A stretch of 51,620 bases of DNA from Acidobacteriota bacterium. Its GTDB lineage: Bacteria; Acidobacteriota; Terriglobia; Bryobacterales; Bryobacteraceae. Below, in pieces: positions 34,219 through 41,048 of this stretch. A program made the translations under genes and the position numbers. The stretch is taken from the NCBI GenBank assembly GCA_005808475.1, contig SYLY01000192.1:1-51620 (forward strand). The letters run 5' to 3'. The notes under the pieces are model-generated. The model searched no databases. It was not told the DNA's origin and saw only the letters and a program-made list of their open reading frames with translations. Positions within the stretch are counted from its first letter, which is position 1. Every line of letters starts with the position of its first letter.

Positions 34219-34983
34219 ATGCTCGAAGTGCGCGGGCTCGTCAAGCGGTACAACCGCATCCCGGCGGTGGACGGCGTGAGCTTCACCATTGCGCCAGGCG
34301 AGGTGCTCGGCTACCTCGGCCCGAACGGCGCGGGCAAGAGCACCACGGTGAAGATCCTCACTGGACTGATCGAACCCACCGAAGGCAAGATCCTGTTCCA
34401 AGGCGAGGATGTGCACCGGGATTTCACGGCGTTCCAAAGGCGGCTAGGCTATGTGCCGGAGGAGGCGCACCTCTATCCGCACCTCGGCGGGCGGGAATAC
34501 CTCCAACTGGTCGGCCGGCTGCGAGGGCTGCCGCGACGCGTGCTGGAACCCCGAATGGACGAGTTGCTGCGGCTGTTCGGGCTCTGGGAGGACCGCCACT
34601 CTCCGCTCTCCTCCTATTCGAAGGGCATGCGCCAGAAAATTCTGCTATCCGGGGCGCTCCTCCACAACCCCGAACTTCTGATCCTGGACGAGCCCTTTTC
34701 CGGCCTGGACGTCAATACGGCGTTGGTGCTGCGAACGCTGCTTCGCGGGCTGGCCGCCGAGGGGCGGATGATCTTCTATAGCTCGCACGTGCTCGAAGTG
34801 GTGGAGAGGATCTGCTCGTCGGTGCTGATCCTCAGGAAAGGGCGTGTGGCCGCGCACGATCGCGTGGAGCGGCTCCGCGATCTGATGAGCCAGGCGTCGC
34901 TCGAGGGCGTGTTCGCGCAACTTACCCAGCAGGAAGACCCGGAAGCGCGCGTCCGGGGCATCCTCGACGCGATCCGCTCATGA
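34219..34983 (+). CDS. ABC transporter ATP-binding protein
   Basis: A 254-residue ABC ATPase of the CcmA/ABC-2 export type. Walker A is GPNGAGKST (residues 34-42), the Q-loop region is RRLGYVPEEAHLYPHL, the signature is YSKGMRQKILLSGALL, and Walker B is LLILDEPFSGLD followed by the H-loop IFYSSHVLE. It is coupled by a 4-base overlap to the permease gene, so the two form one transporter. The substrate is unknown. The lasso-peptide genes start about 1.9 kb downstream, but nothing specific ties the transporter to them. Confidence 0.95.
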   Translation: MLEVRGLVKRYNRIPAVDGVSFTIAPGEVLGYLGPNGAGKSTTVKILTGLIEPTEGKILFQGEDVHRDFTAFQRRLGYVPEEAHLYPHLGGREYLQLVGRLRGLPRRVLEPRMDELLRLFGLWEDRHSPLSSYSKGMRQKILLSGALLHNPELLILDEPFSGLDVNTALVLRTLLRGLAAEGRMIFYSSHVLEVVERICSSVLILRKGRVAAHDRVERLRDLMSQASLEGVFAQLTQQEDPEARVRGILDAIRS

Positions 34984-36734
34984 CCGCCGTGGAGGCCCTT
35001 CGCCGGTTGCGCGAATGGCTCGAGGAGACGCACGGATCGCCGTTCGAACTGCGCCGCCACTTCTTCCGCCGCTTCTTCGATAGCGATCTGGTCGCGTCAC
35101 CCGGCCAGTGGAGGACCGTGGCGGGAGGCCTGATCGCGATCGTGGCGTCGTCCTCGATCGTGGTGATGCAGGCGTACTTCGGCAAGTACCGGGCGCTGCT
35201 CGAACTGGACTCGCCCGAGCCGTACCGGATGGCGATGCTCGCCGATCATCTCTTCTTCATCGTGCTGGGGATGTTCCTCACCGCGCTGCTCACATGCCTG
35301 CAGTGGGGCTCGCTGTTCCCCGCTCTCCGCGACTATCTGGCGCTGGCCGGTCTCCCTCTTCGCGCGCGCGACATCTTCATCGCCAAGTTCCTGGCGCTGC
35401 TGGGTTTCGCGGGCATATTCATCGTGGCGGTGAATCTGCTGCCAGCGGCGATGCTGCCCGCCGTCGCATCGGGACGGCATCAGGTGCTGGGTGGACCCTC
35501 GTTCGTGACGCTGTTCGTCGCGTCATCGTTCGCGTCGCTGCTGCTGTTCTTCGTCTTGGTGGCGGTACAAGGGATCTTGCTGAACATCCTGCCGGTGGGG
35601 TTGTTCCCGCGCGTGTCCTTGTTCGTACAGGCAACGCTGCTGATCGGCCTGCTGTGTGCGTTTCCGCTCACGTTCGCGATCGCGGGCCTCCACGGCATGA
35701 TGAACCAACGGCCGGAATCGGCGCTGGCGTTGCCGCCGGTATGGTACTTGGGGCTGGATCAGTGGATGTTGGGGAATCGGGAGCCGTATGTGGCGGAGTT
35801 GGCGCGGCGTGCGATTCTCGGTCTGGTTGGCGCGGCGGCATCGGCGGCGTTGGCGTACCTGTGGAGCTACCGGCGGCACCGGATCCGCGTGGTGGAGATG
35901 CCGTTCGAGCCGGAGTCCGAGTTGGCGGCGTGGCGGCGGGTCCGAGGATGGCTGGCGGACCGGTTCGCGCCGAACCTGGCCGGGCAGGCCGTCTTGGGAT
36001 TCATCGTGAAGACGCTGTGGCGAAGTCAGCAGCACCGGCTGGTGCTGACCGCGTTCGCGGGGATCGCGGTGGCGCTGGTGTTCAACGGCTTTGTCTCGCT
36101 GATGACGGAGGGCGGATTCCGCGGGTTTGAGGTACGGACGCCAGCGTTGCGCAAGCTGGCGGTGTCGATTCCGCTCTCGCTCACGCTGTTCCTGCTAGCC
36201 GGCTATCGATACCTGTTCCGGCTGCCGGTGGAATTGCGGGCGAACTGGGTGTTCCGGGTGCACGAGGGCGGCAACCGGCTACGGCTGCTGGAGGCGGTGG
36301 AGCGATACCTGATCTGGGCGGGAATCGTGCCGGTGATCGCGCTGACGGCGGTGGTGGAGGTCTGGCTTCTGGGGTGGTGGGAGGGAATCTCCGCGGTGAT
36401 CCCCGCGTTGCTGGCGGCGTTGATTCTACTGGAGATTCTGTTGTTCAAGCTGGAGCGGATTCCGTTCACATCGTCGTATCTGCCGGGGCAGCGGCCACTG
36501 ATCGAGACGCTGCTGCTTTACGGAGTGGGGGTGGCGATCTACATCTCGATTTCGAGCACGCTGATCGCCTCATGCCTGACCGAGCCGCCGTGGTTGACGA
36601 CACTGTGCGGATTGATGACGGCGGGATGGGCCTATGCGAGAAAGGCTCGGGGGGAGGCGTGGCAGTTGGGGAGGCTGGAGTTCGAGGAGTTGGAGGAGCC
36701 TTTGGTGCATACCCTGGGGATCGAGCGGGATTGA
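34980..36734 (+). CDS. ABC transporter permease
   Basis: A 584-residue multi-spanning protein coupled to the upstream ATPase (ATGA overlap). About twelve hydrophobic segments are visible, for example GGLIAIVASSSIVVMQAYF, FFIVLGMFLTALLTCL, FVTLFVASSFASLLLFFVLVAV, GIAVALVFNGFVSLM, LSLTLFLLAGYRYLF and GIVPVIALTAVVEVWLLGWW. The family is an ABC-2-like or uncharacterised acidobacterial permease; the length is about twice that of a simple ABC-2 permease, so two six-helix halves are likely. The chain ends in an acidic tail. The substrate cannot be inferred. Confidence 0.88.
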   Translation: MTAVEALRRLREWLEETHGSPFELRRHFFRRFFDSDLVASPGQWRTVAGGLIAIVASSSIVVMQAYFGKYRALLELDSPEPYRMAMLADHLFFIVLGMFLTALLTCLQWGSLFPALRDYLALAGLPLRARDIFIAKFLALLGFAGIFIVAVNLLPAAMLPAVASGRHQVLGGPSFVTLFVASSFASLLLFFVLVAVQGILLNILPVGLFPRVSLFVQATLLIGLLCAFPLTFAIAGLHGMMNQRPESALALPPVWYLGLDQWMLGNREPYVAELARRAILGLVGAAASAALAYLWSYRRHRIRVVEMPFEPESELAAWRRVRGWLADRFAPNLAGQAVLGFIVKTLWRSQQHRLVLTAFAGIAVALVFNGFVSLMTEGGFRGFEVRTPALRKLAVSIPLSLTLFLLAGYRYLFRLPVELRANWVFRVHEGGNRLRLLEAVERYLIWAGIVPVIALTAVVEVWLLGWWEGISAVIPALLAALILLEILLFKLERIPFTSSYLPGQRPLIETLLLYGVGVAIYISISSTLIASCLTEPPWLTTLCGLMTAGWAYARKARGEAWQLGRLEFEELEEPLVHTLGIERD

Positions 36735-36741
36735 CGGAGCC

Positions 36742-36808
36742 GGGTAGTACCGTGGTACAAAGTACTACCCCATAAAACCATTCTTCGGCTAGTACTATTT
36801 TCTGGTAC
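36742..36808. promoter_or_regulatory. Cluster of GTAC-centred dyads upstream of the lasso-peptide gene
   Basis: GGGTAGTAC (36742-36750) and GTACTACCC (36762-36770) are a perfect 9-bp inverted repeat with an 11-base spacer that itself contains GGTAC. A second element, AGTACTATTTTCTGGTAC (36791-36808), follows. Five GTAC tetramers occur in 62 bases of a GC-rich gap. TACACT at 36806-36811 may be a -10 box for the precursor gene, so the dyads would sit over its promoter. There is no T-run, which argues against a terminator. Confidence 0.5.
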
Positions 36809-36877
36809 ACTTCCTCTCAGTGGGCACGGGCGCGGGGACGGTGCCGCCTGGGTCCACGCCAATCGAGTGGGGATAAA

Positions 36878-37042
36878 ATGAAAACTGTTGTACATAGCGT
36901 TGAGGAGAAGGTTCGGGATCTCGTCTACGAGAAGCCCGTATTGAAAGTCTTGGGGAGCATCGGCGAGTTGACGGCAGGTACCGGGTCGGGTATCGCAGAT
37001 GGCTGCCCGGGAGCCGGGCAGTTCACTCCGCCGGCTTGCTAG
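36878..37042 (+). CDS. Lasso-peptide precursor
   Basis: A 54-residue peptide beginning MKTVVHSVEEK. The leader fits the lasso recognition motif YxxPxLx3Gx5T exactly: Tyr17, Pro20, Leu22, Gly26, Thr32. Thr32 is the penultimate leader residue, so cleavage after Ala33 gives a 21-residue core starting at Gly34 (GTGSGIAD...) and ending ...PPAC. Asp41 is core position 8, which would form an eight-residue Gly1-Asp8 macrolactam ring. The tail has Cys at core positions 10 and 21, able to form a disulfide outside the ring, a rare class IV-like arrangement. GTGGGGA precedes the start. The gene is short enough to be missed by automatic gene callers. An asparagine-synthetase-like cyclase gene starts 12 bases after the stop. 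Recognition is strong; the thread topology is inferred. Confidence 0.9.
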   Translation: MKTVVHSVEEKVRDLVYEKPVLKVLGSIGELTAGTGSGIADGCPGAGQFTPPAC

Positions 37043-37054
37043 CGCCGGGAGGAC

Positions 37055-38824
37055 GTGCGGCCCGGCGCGGTGGAACTAGTGCCTGGGGTTTGGACCGTCC
37101 AAGTGGGACGCGGTCCCACGGCACTTGATCGCGGAAGCATGAGGCTATGGAGCGGCGAGGACAGCGTCTTCGCCGCATCCTTTGGCTCGGTGAAACCGGC
37201 AGAGGCCATAGCCGACTACCGGCAGTCGGAAGCGGGATTCCCGACTCGCCTGGAAGGCGATTGGTCGGTTGCGATCTGGGATTCCCGGCTAAGGGAGCTC
37301 ACATGCGCAAGAGACGCCCTCGGGAATCTCCCGTTTTGCTATTCGCTCCAGGGCGAGGAGTTGCACTTTGCGCGGCGGGTTCGTGACCTGCTGCGGTTTC
37401 CCTCGATCTCCAGAGACATTGACGAGGGGGTAGTTGCTCGGTATCTGGCCGGATCTGGACCCGGCGTGGATGAAACGCTGTTTCGCGACATACGCGTGTT
37501 GCCGGGCGGCCACCGCTTGGCCTTCGACGCCAACGGAGGCCTTCGAGTGCAACGGTGGTGGAAGCCTACGCCGGATGTGCTCCGCCTGAAGTCCGACGCG
37601 GAGTACGAGTCGGAATACAGAAGGCTTCTGACCGAGAGCATCCAGCGCCGGCTCCCGTCCGGCCGTATGGGCTGTCACCTGAGCGGCGGGCTAGACTCCT
37701 CAGCCGTCTCCGTTCTCGCCCATCGGACTGCCGGGGAGCGAGGCGCCGGACCCGTCTCCACGTTCTCGCAGGGTAAGGCGGGAGCGCCGTGGGACGAGAG
37801 TTCGTACATCGCGGAAATCGGCAGGCTTGCAGGGCTCGACTCCCGAATCTTCCCCCCGGGCGACGATCTCGACTACACCGTCCAGGCGGCCGCATACTTC
37901 CTCGACTTCCCCAGTTACCCCAACGGCGGAATCGCCGAGTTGGAGATGGTGCGGGCCGCGCGGGAACTCGGCATCGGCGTCATGCTGACTGGCATGGGCG
38001 GGAACCAAGCATTGGAGCGCGGGGCGGCTCACATGGAAGAGTGGGGAGCAAAGTTCCAGTGGGGGAAAGCGATTCGCGAGATCCAAACCGCGCGGCGTGG
38101 CTATGGTATGCCGCCAGCCCGGCTGGAACCGTTGTGGCGGCTGGCGATTCGGCCCAACCTGGTTCGACTCCTTCCGCAGGGACTCCGTCGCGCGCCTAAC
38201 CTAGGCGCGGCATCCGAGGCGCTAGCCCGGCGCTGCCATCTCGCGGACCGCCTCGCCCCCGATCATGCCGAGCCGTTCGGTTCGATCCAGCAGATGCGGC
38301 AGTTCAACACCTTGATTGGCGCTCGTGAGGCCCAGCCCCGAAACGTGATCGGGTGGGAAGGCACTGGCTACGGCGTGGATCTCGTCCACCCCTTCCACGA
38401 TCGCCGTCTGGTGGAGTTCTGCCTCCGCCTCCCGCTCGATCAGCTCTGGCGCGACGGCATGTGGAAGTCCATTCACCGCCGCGCGATGAAGGGACTGCTC
38501 CCCGAATCCGTCCTCAACCGCCGCGTGCAGGCCGAGTTCAGCGATCATTACCGCCGCCTGCTCGCCAAGCCCTTCGCCCGCGAGCGCCTGCGGAACCTCC
38601 GCATGATGCGCGAGACCGACTGGCTGGACCCGAAACGCACCGCCAAGATCATCGAGGACGCCGACGCCCTCGTCGCGAGCGGCGGTTGGGGCCGCCCCAT
38701 CCGGCTCGCCTGGAACATCTTTGCGCTCGACCTCTGGTTCGACGCCGTTCAGTCCGGCAAATGGACCGACGTCCATCCTATGGACTACATCCTCTCCAAA
38801 CCGCGCGGCGCCGCTACGATATAG
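37055..38824 (+). CDS. Lasso-peptide cyclase (asparagine synthetase-like)
   Basis: A 589-residue ATP-dependent macrolactam synthetase. The N-terminal domain (to about residue 160) is a glutaminase-like fold with no N-terminal Cys, so it cannot use glutamine, as expected for lasso cyclases. The synthetase domain has the PPi loop Ser210-Gly-Gly-Leu-Asp214-Ser-Ser, and a Lys-bearing segment MWKSIHRRAMKGLLPESVLNRR typical of the catalytic region. The second loop reads TGMGGNQ (312-318), where most relatives have Asp instead of Asn317. The enzyme would adenylate the core Asp8 side chain and join it to Gly1. GTG 37055 is preceded by GGGAGGA. No RRE/PqqD-like B1 or cysteine protease B2 gene occurs on either side; downstream genes look unrelated. 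Confidence 0.9.
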   Translation: MRPGAVELVPGVWTVQVGRGPTALDRGSMRLWSGEDSVFAASFGSVKPAEAIADYRQSEAGFPTRLEGDWSVAIWDSRLRELTCARDALGNLPFCYSLQGEELHFARRVRDLLRFPSISRDIDEGVVARYLAGSGPGVDETLFRDIRVLPGGHRLAFDANGGLRVQRWWKPTPDVLRLKSDAEYESEYRRLLTESIQRRLPSGRMGCHLSGGLDSSAVSVLAHRTAGERGAGPVSTFSQGKAGAPWDESSYIAEIGRLAGLDSRIFPPGDDLDYTVQAAAYFLDFPSYPNGGIAELEMVRAARELGIGVMLTGMGGNQALERGAAHMEEWGAKFQWGKAIREIQTARRGYGMPPARLEPLWRLAIRPNLVRLLPQGLRRAPNLGAASEALARRCHLADRLAPDHAEPFGSIQQMRQFNTLIGAREAQPRNVIGWEGTGYGVDLVHPFHDRRLVEFCLRLPLDQLWRDGMWKSIHRRAMKGLLPESVLNRRVQAEFSDHYRRLLAKPFARERLRNLRMMRETDWLDPKRTAKIIEDADALVASGGWGRPIRLAWNIFALDLWFDAVQSGKWTDVHPMDYILSKPRGAATI

Positions 38825-38867
38825 CAAAGGCGCATGGACGAGGTCCCCTCTGTGGGACACTCTCTCC

Positions 38868-41048
38868 ATGCGCCGAACCGCGGCCGCCCTGATCCTGCTG
38901 CTCGCCGGATGCTCCCGGCGGGAGGCGGCTCCGCGCCCGGTCGCGGCCGAGTTCGCCGATCCCCGCACCTGCGCGGCCTGCCATGCCGATATCGCGCGGA
39001 CCTACGCGCAAACCGGCATGGCCAAGGCGTTCGCCCGCGTCAAACCGGGATCGCTGACCGCCGAAAAGTGGAACGCCCGGCTGGACCATCCTCCCTCGAA
39101 CCGTTCCTACGAATTGATCCGGCGCGACACCGGCTACTTCATCCGGCGCACCGCGCCCGGCATCGAACCTCTGGAACTGGAGATCCACTACGTGATGGGC
39201 TCCGGCCTACACGCGCGGAGCTACGTCCACCGCACTCCTCAGGGCCGGCTGGTGGAGTTGCCCGCCGCCTGGTATCCGGAAAAGGGCGGATACTTCGCCA
39301 TGAGCCCCGGTTACGACCGGCCGGACCACCAGGACTTCCGACGCAAGATCTCCACCGACTGCATGTTCTGCCACAACGGCTATCCCGCCGCCGCTCCCGG
39401 CGCCGGCCGTCCCGCATCCGAGCCCGTCTTTCCGGCGACGCTGCCCGAAGGGATCGACTGCCAGCGCTGCCACGGACCCGCCCGCGCCCACGCCGATTCG
39501 GGCGGACGCGCGCCGGTGGTGAACCCCGCCAAGCTGCCATTGGAGCGCGGCATGGAAATCTGCATGCAGTGTCATCTGGAGACCACCAGCTTCCCACTGC
39601 CCAATTCGCTGATCCGTTTCGGGCGCGGCGCCTACTCGTACCGCCCGGGCGAGCCTCTGGCGGATTTCGTGCTGCACTTCGACCACGCGCCGGCGGCGGG
39701 CCGCGGCGGCAAGTTCGAGATCGTGAACTCGGTCTACCGGCTGCGCCAATCGAAGTGCTTCACGGCGAGCGGGAAGATGCAGTGCACTACTTGTCACGAT
39801 CCGCACCGCGTTCCGCGCGGCGCCGATGCCGAGGCATCGTACTCCAAGGCTTGCCGGCAATGCCATGCGGCGGGGCCGCATCCGGAACGCGCCGGCTGTG
39901 TGTCGTGCCACATGCCGAAGCGGCGGAGCGAGGATGTGGTCCACGCGGTGATGACGGATCATCTGATTCAGCGCAAGCCGCCGGCGAATCCACTGGGGCC
40001 GCTCGCCGAACGTCATGAGACGCCGGGCAAGTCGTACGTCGGAGAGGTGGTTCCCTACTATCCGGCGGCGGTTAGCGGCGAGGCGGAACTGGAATCGGCG
40101 GTGGCGCAGGTGGTGCAGCGCTCCAACCTGAAGGCGGGGATCCCCAGGCTCGAGGCGCTGATCGCGCGGAGCCGGCCGCGCCATCCGCAACCCGAGTTCG
40201 CTCTGGCGCAGGCTCTGGCGGTGGACGGCCAACGCGCCCGCGCGATCGAGATCTACCGCGCGTTGCTGGTGCGTGAGCCGCGATTCGTCCCCGCGCTGCG
40301 GAACCTGGGAGAGCTGCTGCGTGCGTCCGGCAACGCCACGGAAGCGGCCGCCGTTCTCGAACGCGCCAAGGCGGAAGCTCTGGACGATCCGGGCGTGTTG
40401 CTCGCGTTGGGCCAGGCGTATCGCGAGACCCACCGGCTGAACGATGCGGCCTCCGCGATCCGCGCCGCGATCGCCAACGACGCCGATTTCCCCGAAGCGC
40501 ACGATTCGCTCGGCGGCGTGCTGCTGGAAGCGGGCCGCGCGGCGGACGCGGAAGCGGCGTTGCGGGAGGCGATCCGCCATCGGCCCGACTTCGCCGAAGC
40601 GCGGGCGAATCTGGCGCAAGCGATGGCGCTACGCGGCGATCTGGCATCCGCCGAGAGGCAGTTCCGCGAGGCGGCGCGGCTTGCCCCCGGTTCGCCGGAG
40701 GTCCACTACGGATACGGCGCGGCGCTGCTGAGGGCCGAGCGGATCGCCGGAGCGCGCATCGAGCTGGAAACGGCGATCCGGTTGCGGCCGGGAATGGTGG
40801 AGGCGCGGGAGGCCCTCGGCACGCTGCTTTCGGCGGAGGGCGATTGGAGCGGAGCGGCGGCGCAGTATCGCGAGGTGCTGCGGCTCGACTCCGGATCGGC
40901 GCGAGCGAGCCTCGGCCTGGGTTCGGCGCTGGCGGCGCAAGGCGCTCCGGCCGAAGCGCGCCGGCATCTGGATCGCGCCATCGCGGCGGGCGACGAGGCG
41001 GTGCGAAAAGAGGCTCGCGAAGTGTTGGAAATGCTCGGCGCGCGGTGA
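38868..41048 (+). CDS. Multiheme cytochrome c lipoprotein with TPR repeats
   Basis: A 726-residue protein. The lipobox LLLAGC gives a lipidated Cys15. Seven CxxCH heme sites follow: CAACH (35), CMFCH, CQRCH, CMQCH, CTTCH, CRQCH and CVSCH, in the first 350 or so residues. The C-terminal 350 residues are TPR repeats (for example AIEIYRALLVREPRFVPALRNLGELLR, AEAALREAIRHRPDFAEARANLAQAM, ASAERQFREAARLAPGSPEVHYGYGAALL). This is a cytochrome c554/NrfA-like multiheme domain joined to TPRs, common in Acidobacteriota. It could pass electrons at the periplasmic side or outer membrane; the donor and acceptor are unknown. The start at 38868 is set by the lipoprotein signal. The next gene starts 4 bases after its stop. 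Confidence 0.92.
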   Translation: MRRTAAALILLLAGCSRREAAPRPVAAEFADPRTCAACHADIARTYAQTGMAKAFARVKPGSLTAEKWNARLDHPPSNRSYELIRRDTGYFIRRTAPGIEPLELEIHYVMGSGLHARSYVHRTPQGRLVELPAAWYPEKGGYFAMSPGYDRPDHQDFRRKISTDCMFCHNGYPAAAPGAGRPASEPVFPATLPEGIDCQRCHGPARAHADSGGRAPVVNPAKLPLERGMEICMQCHLETTSFPLPNSLIRFGRGAYSYRPGEPLADFVLHFDHAPAAGRGGKFEIVNSVYRLRQSKCFTASGKMQCTTCHDPHRVPRGADAEASYSKACRQCHAAGPHPERAGCVSCHMPKRRSEDVVHAVMTDHLIQRKPPANPLGPLAERHETPGKSYVGEVVPYYPAAVSGEAELESAVAQVVQRSNLKAGIPRLEALIARSRPRHPQPEFALAQALAVDGQRARAIEIYRALLVREPRFVPALRNLGELLRASGNATEAAAVLERAKAEALDDPGVLLALGQAYRETHRLNDAASAIRAAIANDADFPEAHDSLGGVLLEAGRAADAEAALREAIRHRPDFAEARANLAQAMALRGDLASAERQFREAARLAPGSPEVHYGYGAALLRAERIAGARIELETAIRLRPGMVEAREALGTLLSAEGDWSGAAAQYREVLRLDSGSARASLGLGSALAAQGAPAEARRHLDRAIAAGDEAVRKEAREVLEMLGAR

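What the first reader, a model, noticed from the sequence alone, without database searches (positions are those of the whole stretch)
36878..37042. Unannotated lasso-peptide precursor with two tail cysteines
The 54-residue peptide shows the complete leader motif YxxPxLx3Gx5T (Tyr17, Pro20, Leu22, Gly26, Thr32) and a 21-residue core with Gly1 and Asp8 positioned for an eight-residue ring. Core Cys10 and Cys21 could form a disulfide outside the ring; among described lasso peptides only the class IV type (LP2006) is built this way. The ring GTGSGIAD is small and Gly-rich, and the chain ends in Cys. I know of no named lasso peptide with this core.
Basis: partly seen in the sequence, partly recalled or inferred. 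Interest (0 to 1): 0.93.

Follow-up and report, generated by a model that had tools for sequence, protein, structure and literature searches.

The report
Lasso precursor-cyclase pair lacking protease
A 51.6-kb bacterial contig, likely acidobacterial, holds a small gene with the leader signals of a lasso peptide directly before an open frame for a lasso-type enzyme that would close the ring, and no leader-cutting protease gene was found on it, so it would probably need proteins encoded elsewhere in the genome to make a predicted threaded peptide whose two tail cysteines could join.

Summary
The next frame encodes a lasso-type cyclase with a confident predicted fold, grouped with lasso cyclases (SH-aLRT 97). 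The assembly has two B1-type proteins elsewhere but no B2 found (77% complete). A same-genus genome carries a solitary B2, so B working in trans is plausible, unproven. The nearest precursor family (444 hits; 120 read) has an 8- or 9-residue ring and mostly ends in Cys-Leu; 1 of 120 has two cysteines. So Cys21 plausibly matches a family trait, Cys10 is private, and a class IV disulfide is possible, not shown. Class IV also includes pandonodin and felipeptins. Verdict: a new variant of lasso locus; product and disulfide untested.

The parts
36878..37042 (+). Precursor gene (A): 54 codons plus stop
   Evidence: NF033521 21.2 bits over cut-off 19
36878..36976 (+). Leader, residues 1-33, with Y17, P20, L22, G26, T32; predicted cleavage after A33
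   Evidence: Y17, P20, G26 and T32 are invariant in 12 aligned precursors, this one included; cleavage after the residue that follows Thr is inferred
36977..37039 (+). Core, residues 34-54 (GTGSGIADGCPGAGQFTPPAC); predicted ring Gly34-Asp41 (36977-37000); Cys43 codon 37004-37006, Cys54 codon 37037-37039
   Evidence: sequence; alignment with relatives
37055..38824 (+). Lasso-type cyclase (C), asparagine-synthetase fold; GTG start at 37055 (589 aa) or, more likely, ATG at 37139 (561 aa)
   Evidence: PF00733 122 bits; NF033535 best NCBIfam match but under its cut-off; tree SH-aLRT 97; AlphaFold pTM 0.89, residues 1-33 pLDDT under 50; the database copy starts at 37139
36742..36770 (.). Dyad GGGTAGTAC-11-GTACTACCC upstream of A; possible operator, function not shown
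   Evidence: no other place in the assembly matches its core pattern, but the reversed control pattern also occurs

Best explanation
The locus is a two-gene lasso-type pair, a precursor (A) with a complete lasso leader motif and a ring-closing-type enzyme (C) with the conserved ATP-site residues, that would likely be completed by leader-binding (B1) and leader-cutting (B2) proteins made elsewhere in the genome, because neither was found on this 51.6-kb contig. Predicted course (enzyme roles recalled from known lasso pathways): a B1 (two candidates lie on contigs C16 and C172) binds the Y17/P20 part of the leader, an unlinked B2 cuts between Ala33 and Gly34, and C activates Asp8 with ATP and closes an eight-residue Gly1-Asp8 macrolactam around the tail. 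The 21-residue product would have mass 1844.78 Da; Cys10 and Cys21 lie outside the ring and could form a tail-tail disulfide (1842.77 Da). Shown: both frames, the leader motif, the place of C among lasso cyclases, no local B gene at the sensitivity used, B1-type genes elsewhere in the assembly. Inferred: that C is active, that B acts in trans, threading, cleavage site, disulfide. Not found: a B2 in this incomplete assembly.
For: Leader model over cut-off, its only match in the assembly at E 0.01, 0 in 60 random controls. Window C is in a 33-row group of a 140-row quick tree (SH-aLRT 97); of the 14 other loci in that group 11 have B1 and B2 in the stretch held and 3 have B1 alone, and 10 have a motif-bearing precursor. 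Leader Y, P, G, T invariant in 12 precursors. In SGGLDSS the S, G, G, D and second S are invariant in 40 rows, window C included; model pTM 0.89, nearest folds TsnB9, beta-lactam synthetase and asparagine synthetase. B1-type proteins over the Pfam cut-off on C16 and C172. Parallels: same-genus G002 (99% complete) has one PF13471 protein, over NCBIfam's B2 cut-off, inside a 29.8-kb contig in which no B1 or C was found, and B1-type genes on other contigs; L133, a MAG titled Epsilonproteobacteria, has an A-C pair with no B found in 9.9 kb and B2 and B1 on other contigs.
Against: No B2 in the own assembly with two models (PF13471 0 matches; NF033537 best 13.5 bits, under cut-off 33), although the assembly is only 77% complete. 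The C16 locus (precursor-like frame, B1, C) shows no B2 either. C has a shortened N-terminal domain: 71 residues at most before the GDF/GDW motif against a median of 130 in 75 cyclases. The leader departs from the common family form PYxxPxLxEYGSVAKLT. C is under NCBIfam's cyclase cut-off (213.6 of 525), but so is C of L193, which has B1, B2 and A (450.6). In L133's genome the contig with B2 also carries a cyclase end, so that B2 may serve its own cluster. No expression or product data.
Confidence: 0.66

Rival explanations
1. A remnant: a former operon with B1, B2, C and A lost B1, B2 and the 5' part of C, leaving two open frames that no longer make a product.
For: No B gene found on the contig, no B2 in the assembly, short N-terminus of C, long branch of C in the tree (nearest row at 1.68). 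The ABC pair upstream is kept in G001, G002 and G032 with no A, B1, B2 or C found in the 14-19 kb held around it, so the pair is not shared at this place by those three.
Against: C is open over 593 codons with third-position GC of 0.78, conserved ATP-site residues and a confident whole fold; its 90% cluster has 3 member sequences on 3 contigs, one of which may be this one. Two other lasso-type C with as short or shorter N-termini exist (L126, beside B2, a kinase-like and an ABC-exporter-like frame; L133). The leader keeps Y, P, L, G and T.
Confidence: 0.22
2. A lasso-like RiPP of another kind: C closes a ring on this peptide, but the leader is cut by an unrelated protease and the product may be an unthreaded macrolactam.
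For: No Transglut_core3 protein found in the assembly, although B1-type and asparagine-synthase-type genes are there.
Against: Leader and C resemble those of loci that mostly have B1 and B2. I saw no protease among the 8 window proteins scanned with Pfam, but the rest of the window was not scanned.
Confidence: 0.09
3. Chance frame: the 54-codon ORF is not a gene.
For: Small ORF; a single-sequence protein search found only itself; no sigma-70-like promoter match in 36500-39000.
Against: Leader model over cut-off, 0 of 60 random controls, directly before a lasso-type C, relatives by profile, one 41% identical over 98% of its length, ring end aligned.
Confidence: 0.03

Closest known systems
Lasso peptides with an eight-residue Asp/Glu ring (RiPP family, B1-B2-C machinery)
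   Same: Leader Y..P.L...G.....T, Gly1 and Asp8, adjacent lasso-type cyclase.
   Different: No B1 or B2 found on the contig; 38 of 48 loci compared (window included) have both nearby.
Unnamed precursor family ending in Cys-Leu (P0123-P0242; at least six carry the NCBI name 'lasso RiPP family leader peptide-containing protein')
   Same: Nearest precursors by profile and nearest cyclase group; G/S/T/A-rich ring ending in Asp/Glu8 (112 of 120 read) or 9 (8); a Cys within the last three residues in 107 of 120.
   Different: Window peptide ends in Cys, not Cys-Leu (105 of 120 end in CL), has a second Cys (1 of 120 does), no Met in the tail (19 of 120 have none). In the loci seen the order is mostly B1-B2-C-A.
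Class IV lasso peptides: LP2006, pandonodin, felipeptins (PMC9266682, passages; PMC13352647, passages)
   Same: Two cysteines, both outside the ring, so a tail-tail disulfide is possible.
   Different: Disulfide not shown here; those clusters have the A-D genes according to PMC9266682 (passage), this one has A and C only.
Acidobacterial lasso clusters recovered from soil metagenomes, BGC 40.1, 482.1, 44.1 (PMC9064862, passages)
   Same: Same phylum by inference, lasso-type C gene.
   Different: Those encode B1, B2 and C; A was annotated for 482.1 and 44.1 but left open for 40.1.

Membership tests
Lasso peptide locus | Precursor with lasso leader motif and Thr at -2 | tested here: met
Lasso peptide locus | Core starting with Gly (or similar) and Asp/Glu at 7-9 | tested here: met
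   Gly1, Asp8, the only acidic residue; aligned with relatives
Lasso peptide locus | Lasso-type macrolactam synthetase (C) beside it | tested here: met
   the NCBIfam cut-off itself is not reached, nor by C of L193, which has B1, B2 and A
Lasso peptide locus | B1 (RRE/PqqD) and B2 (Transglut_core3) in the cluster | tested here: not met
   no hit in the window with HMMs built from relatives
Lasso peptide locus | B1 and B2 somewhere in the genome | tested here: inconclusive
   B1-type on C16 and C172; B2 not found in a 77%-complete assembly
Lasso peptide locus | Isopeptide bond and threaded tail | not testable with these tools
   needs mass spectrometry and NMR or ion mobility
Class IV lasso peptide | Two cysteines outside the ring | tested here: met
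   Cys10 and Cys21 with predicted ring end Asp8
Class IV lasso peptide | Disulfide between them | not testable with these tools
   no structure or mass; a second Cys is rare in the nearest precursors (1 of 120)
Cys-Leu precursor family | Cyclase in the same tree group as those of Cys-Leu loci | tested here: met
   SH-aLRT 97 (quick search, 140 rows, no bootstrap)
Cys-Leu precursor family | C-terminal Cys-Leu | tested here: not met
   window core ends ...PPAC; 105 of 120 read relatives end in CL

The most novel reading that the evidence does not exclude
Precursor-cyclase pairs without B genes are a split lasso architecture: several A-C loci in one genome share an unlinked B1 and a solitary B2 (window in a likely Bryobacteraceae genome, L133 in an Epsilonproteobacteria genome, lone B2 in the same-genus G002). 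The window peptide would then be a class IV derivative of a very large, uncharacterised lasso family whose one C-terminal cysteine and Met-containing tails suggest soft-metal binding, such as Cu(I), or Cys-linked dimers, a role that the window peptide traded for an internal disulfide through a new Cys10.
Probability: 0.15. Interest if true: 0.75.

Novelty: new variant of a known kind. Interest (0 to 1): 0.5.

Why it matters
Genome mining for lasso peptides commonly relies on B and C genes standing together (recalled); a pair like this one, and a B2 with no partner gene near it, could be missed or dismissed. If B acts in trans, one protease set could serve several precursors, which is testable with four proteins. 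The relatives gathered on the way outline a widespread precursor family with a near-fixed C-terminal cysteine, for which my literature searches listed no characterised product (listings; only open-licence papers are held), a clear target for isolation.

Tried and rejected
Rejected: that the ABC pair 34219-36734 is the lasso exporter; G001, G002 and G032 have it too, with other genes downstream and no A, B1, B2 or C found in the stretches held. Rejected: that the dyad 36742-36770 marks a regulon; no other place in the assembly matches its core pattern, and the reversed control pattern occurs there twice. Not significant: hairpin GCGCCGGG/CCCGGCGC over the GTG start of C (37042-37068) folds no better than shuffles (z 0.93), nor does the dyad stretch (z -0.98). 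Judged unlikely, not tested further: that the cytochrome/TPR gene downstream (38834-41048) belongs to the pair (TPR and multihaem matches).

Tried without result: relatives of the precursor by single sequence (only itself). Literature on Cys-terminal, Met-rich, metal-binding, Nitrospira or unlinked lasso systems (listings): nothing on the point; a passage of PMC12971885 tells of an unlinked tailoring enzyme, PAD, for citrulassins. Neighbours of the Cys-Leu precursors (methyltransferase with PRMT_C match in L079 and L080, HPr-kinase-like in L079 under Pfam's cut-off, NTP_transf_5 in L080) gave no function.

My B1 and B2 profiles came from 6-frame segments of relatives, so far relatives can be missed (L089 showed no B2 even at E 10). 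Relaxed-motif frames also turned up without lasso genes (two in L241, one in L236), so the motif alone is not proof. The control resampled from a first-order Markov chain, not exact shuffles. Of the loci behind, one pair (L084, L092) shares an exact 60-mer; closer kinship was not removed. The taxon is inferred: P0144, named Bryobacteraceae, reports a longest contig of 16306 bases, the length of contig G013:C328, a same-family genome that holds that precursor.

Full report
What is there. The frame 36878-37042 (+) encodes the 54-residue peptide exactly as described. It passes NCBIfam's lasso leader model NF033521 (21.2 bits, cut-off 19); at E 0.01 that model finds one place in the 7.9-Mb own assembly, this one, and matches in 7 of 150 genomes drawn from the same family, own genome included. 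The full motif with a start before and a stop after it occurs once in the window and in 0 of 60 Markov resamplings.

The neighbour. From 37043 an open frame of 593 codons runs to the stop at 38822-38824. The protein is an asparagine-synthetase homologue (PF00733 122 bits) whose best NCBIfam match is the lasso cyclase model, under its cut-off (213.6 of 525). It keeps the SGGLDSS ATP site and other near-invariant residues. AlphaFold gives pTM 0.89 and mean pLDDT 87.6; residues 1-33 counted from GTG 37055 are under 50, and the database copy starts at ATG 37139, so that start is likelier. Nearest solved folds are TsnB9, beta-lactam synthetase and asparagine synthetase. The closest other proteins are 38% identical; in the first 100 relatives searched the best match by E-value was 30% identical over residues 66-565 (a few shorter matches reach 39%). 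In a quick tree of 140 cyclases it groups with P0004-P0009 (SH-aLRT 99) inside a group of 33 rows (97; branches between them 62 and 77), on a long branch (SH-aLRT only, rooting arbitrary).

What is missing. With profiles made from relatives, no B1 or B2 is found in any frame of the window, which is a whole contig with the pair well inside it. Among 48 loci (window and the C16 locus included) where a motif-bearing precursor lies within 3 kb of a cyclase on the same strand, 38 have both B1 and B2 in the stretch I held, 6 have one and 4 have none: L064 (a 3.95-kb contig), L129 (doubtful precursor), L133 and the window (loci of uneven length, chosen by earlier searches for C, B2 or leader, so not a random sample). 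Of the 14 other loci in the window's own tree group, 11 have both and 3 have B1 only.

Could B come from elsewhere. The own assembly (77% complete) has two PqqD-type proteins over the Pfam cut-off, on C16 and C172, and no B2: PF13471 gives 0 matches, NF033537 only 13.5 bits. C16 holds a second lasso-like locus: a precursor-like frame, B1, C, an HPr-kinase-like and a methyltransferase gene, and a divergent frame that reads like an ABC exporter, again no B2. In the family, 30 of 150 genomes have a PF13471 protein. In the same genus G002 has one, in a 29.8-kb contig in which no B1 or C was found, while its B1-type genes are on C380, C11 and C395. G001 also has B1 and B2 on different contigs, but there contig ends are near, so this counts for little. 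L133 is an A-C pair with no B found in 9.9 kb; its genome has B2 on one contig, beside the end of another cyclase, and B1 on a third. Of four genomes tested for B2 because their locus lacked B1, B2 or both, each has one (4 of 4): on the locus's own contig for L126, on another contig for L133, L091 and L109 (lengths; L109's contig is only 4.9 kb). This makes B in trans plausible; it does not show it.

A remnant? The cyclase is short at the N-terminus: at most 71 residues before the GDF/GDW motif against a median of 130 in 75 cyclases with the motif; shorter ones are L067 (with unread bases), L133 and L126. L126 stands beside B2 and kinase-like and exporter-like frames, so a short N-terminus need not mean decay. 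The upstream ABC pair is present in G001, G002 and G032 with other genes downstream and no lasso gene found in the 14, 19 and 18 kb held, so the pair is not shared at this place by those three.

The cysteines. An alignment of 12 precursors, this one included, has Y17, P20, G26 and T32 invariant. A profile search found 444 proteins at E 0.1 or better; I could read the best 120. Of these 112 have Asp/Glu at core position 8 and 8 at position 9; 105 end in Cys-Leu; 107 have Cys in the last three residues; 13 have no Cys; 1 (P0132, the L192 precursor) has two, at 7 and 22. The search profile itself contained four Cys-Leu rows of 12, so the share is biased upward. The window's Cys21 plausibly corresponds to the family cysteine; Cys10 is its own. 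A tail-tail disulfide would make it class IV, with LP2006, pandonodin and felipeptins (PMC9266682 passages; PMC13352647 passages), but since a lone cysteine is the rule among the relatives read, the disulfide cannot be read from conservation.

Verdict. A real lasso-type precursor and cyclase, in an unusual split setting. It matches a lasso locus in each part that could be tested except the local B genes, which were not found; I therefore do not call it a complete lasso cluster. Product, threading and disulfide are untested.

Noticed in passing
P0123-P0242, loci L079, L080, L089, L193: Large precursor family: 8-residue Gly/Ser/Thr/Ala-rich ring with Asp/Glu8, tails often with Met, C-terminal Cys-Leu in 105 of 120 read (444 found). 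PRMT_C-type methyltransferase beside it in L079 and L080, NTP_transf_5 in L080; similar frames in L193 read by eye.
   Followed up: partly
L061, L063, L203, L205: Lasso-type leader motifs beside B1 and B2 with only about 8-10 residues left after the expected cut and no cyclase hit in the stretch held; short for a known lasso core.
   Followed up: no
L164 5727-10189 (own contig C16): Second lasso-like locus of the same genome: precursor-like frame with a 9-residue tail after the expected cut (ASGLGDMND), B1, C, HPr-kinase-like and methyltransferase genes, divergent exporter-like frame, no B2 found.
   Followed up: partly
L241 15804-16499 (G002 contig C52): Solitary lasso B2 gene in a 29.8-kb contig in which no B1 or C was found.
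   Followed up: yes
L133 2164-4038: A-C pair without B genes found nearby in a MAG titled Epsilonproteobacteria, predicted ring GSGTGISD, cyclase with short N-terminus.
   Followed up: partly
window 36742-36770: Perfect 9-base dyad GGGTAGTAC/GTACTACCC upstream of the precursor; the only match of its core pattern in the assembly.
   Followed up: yes
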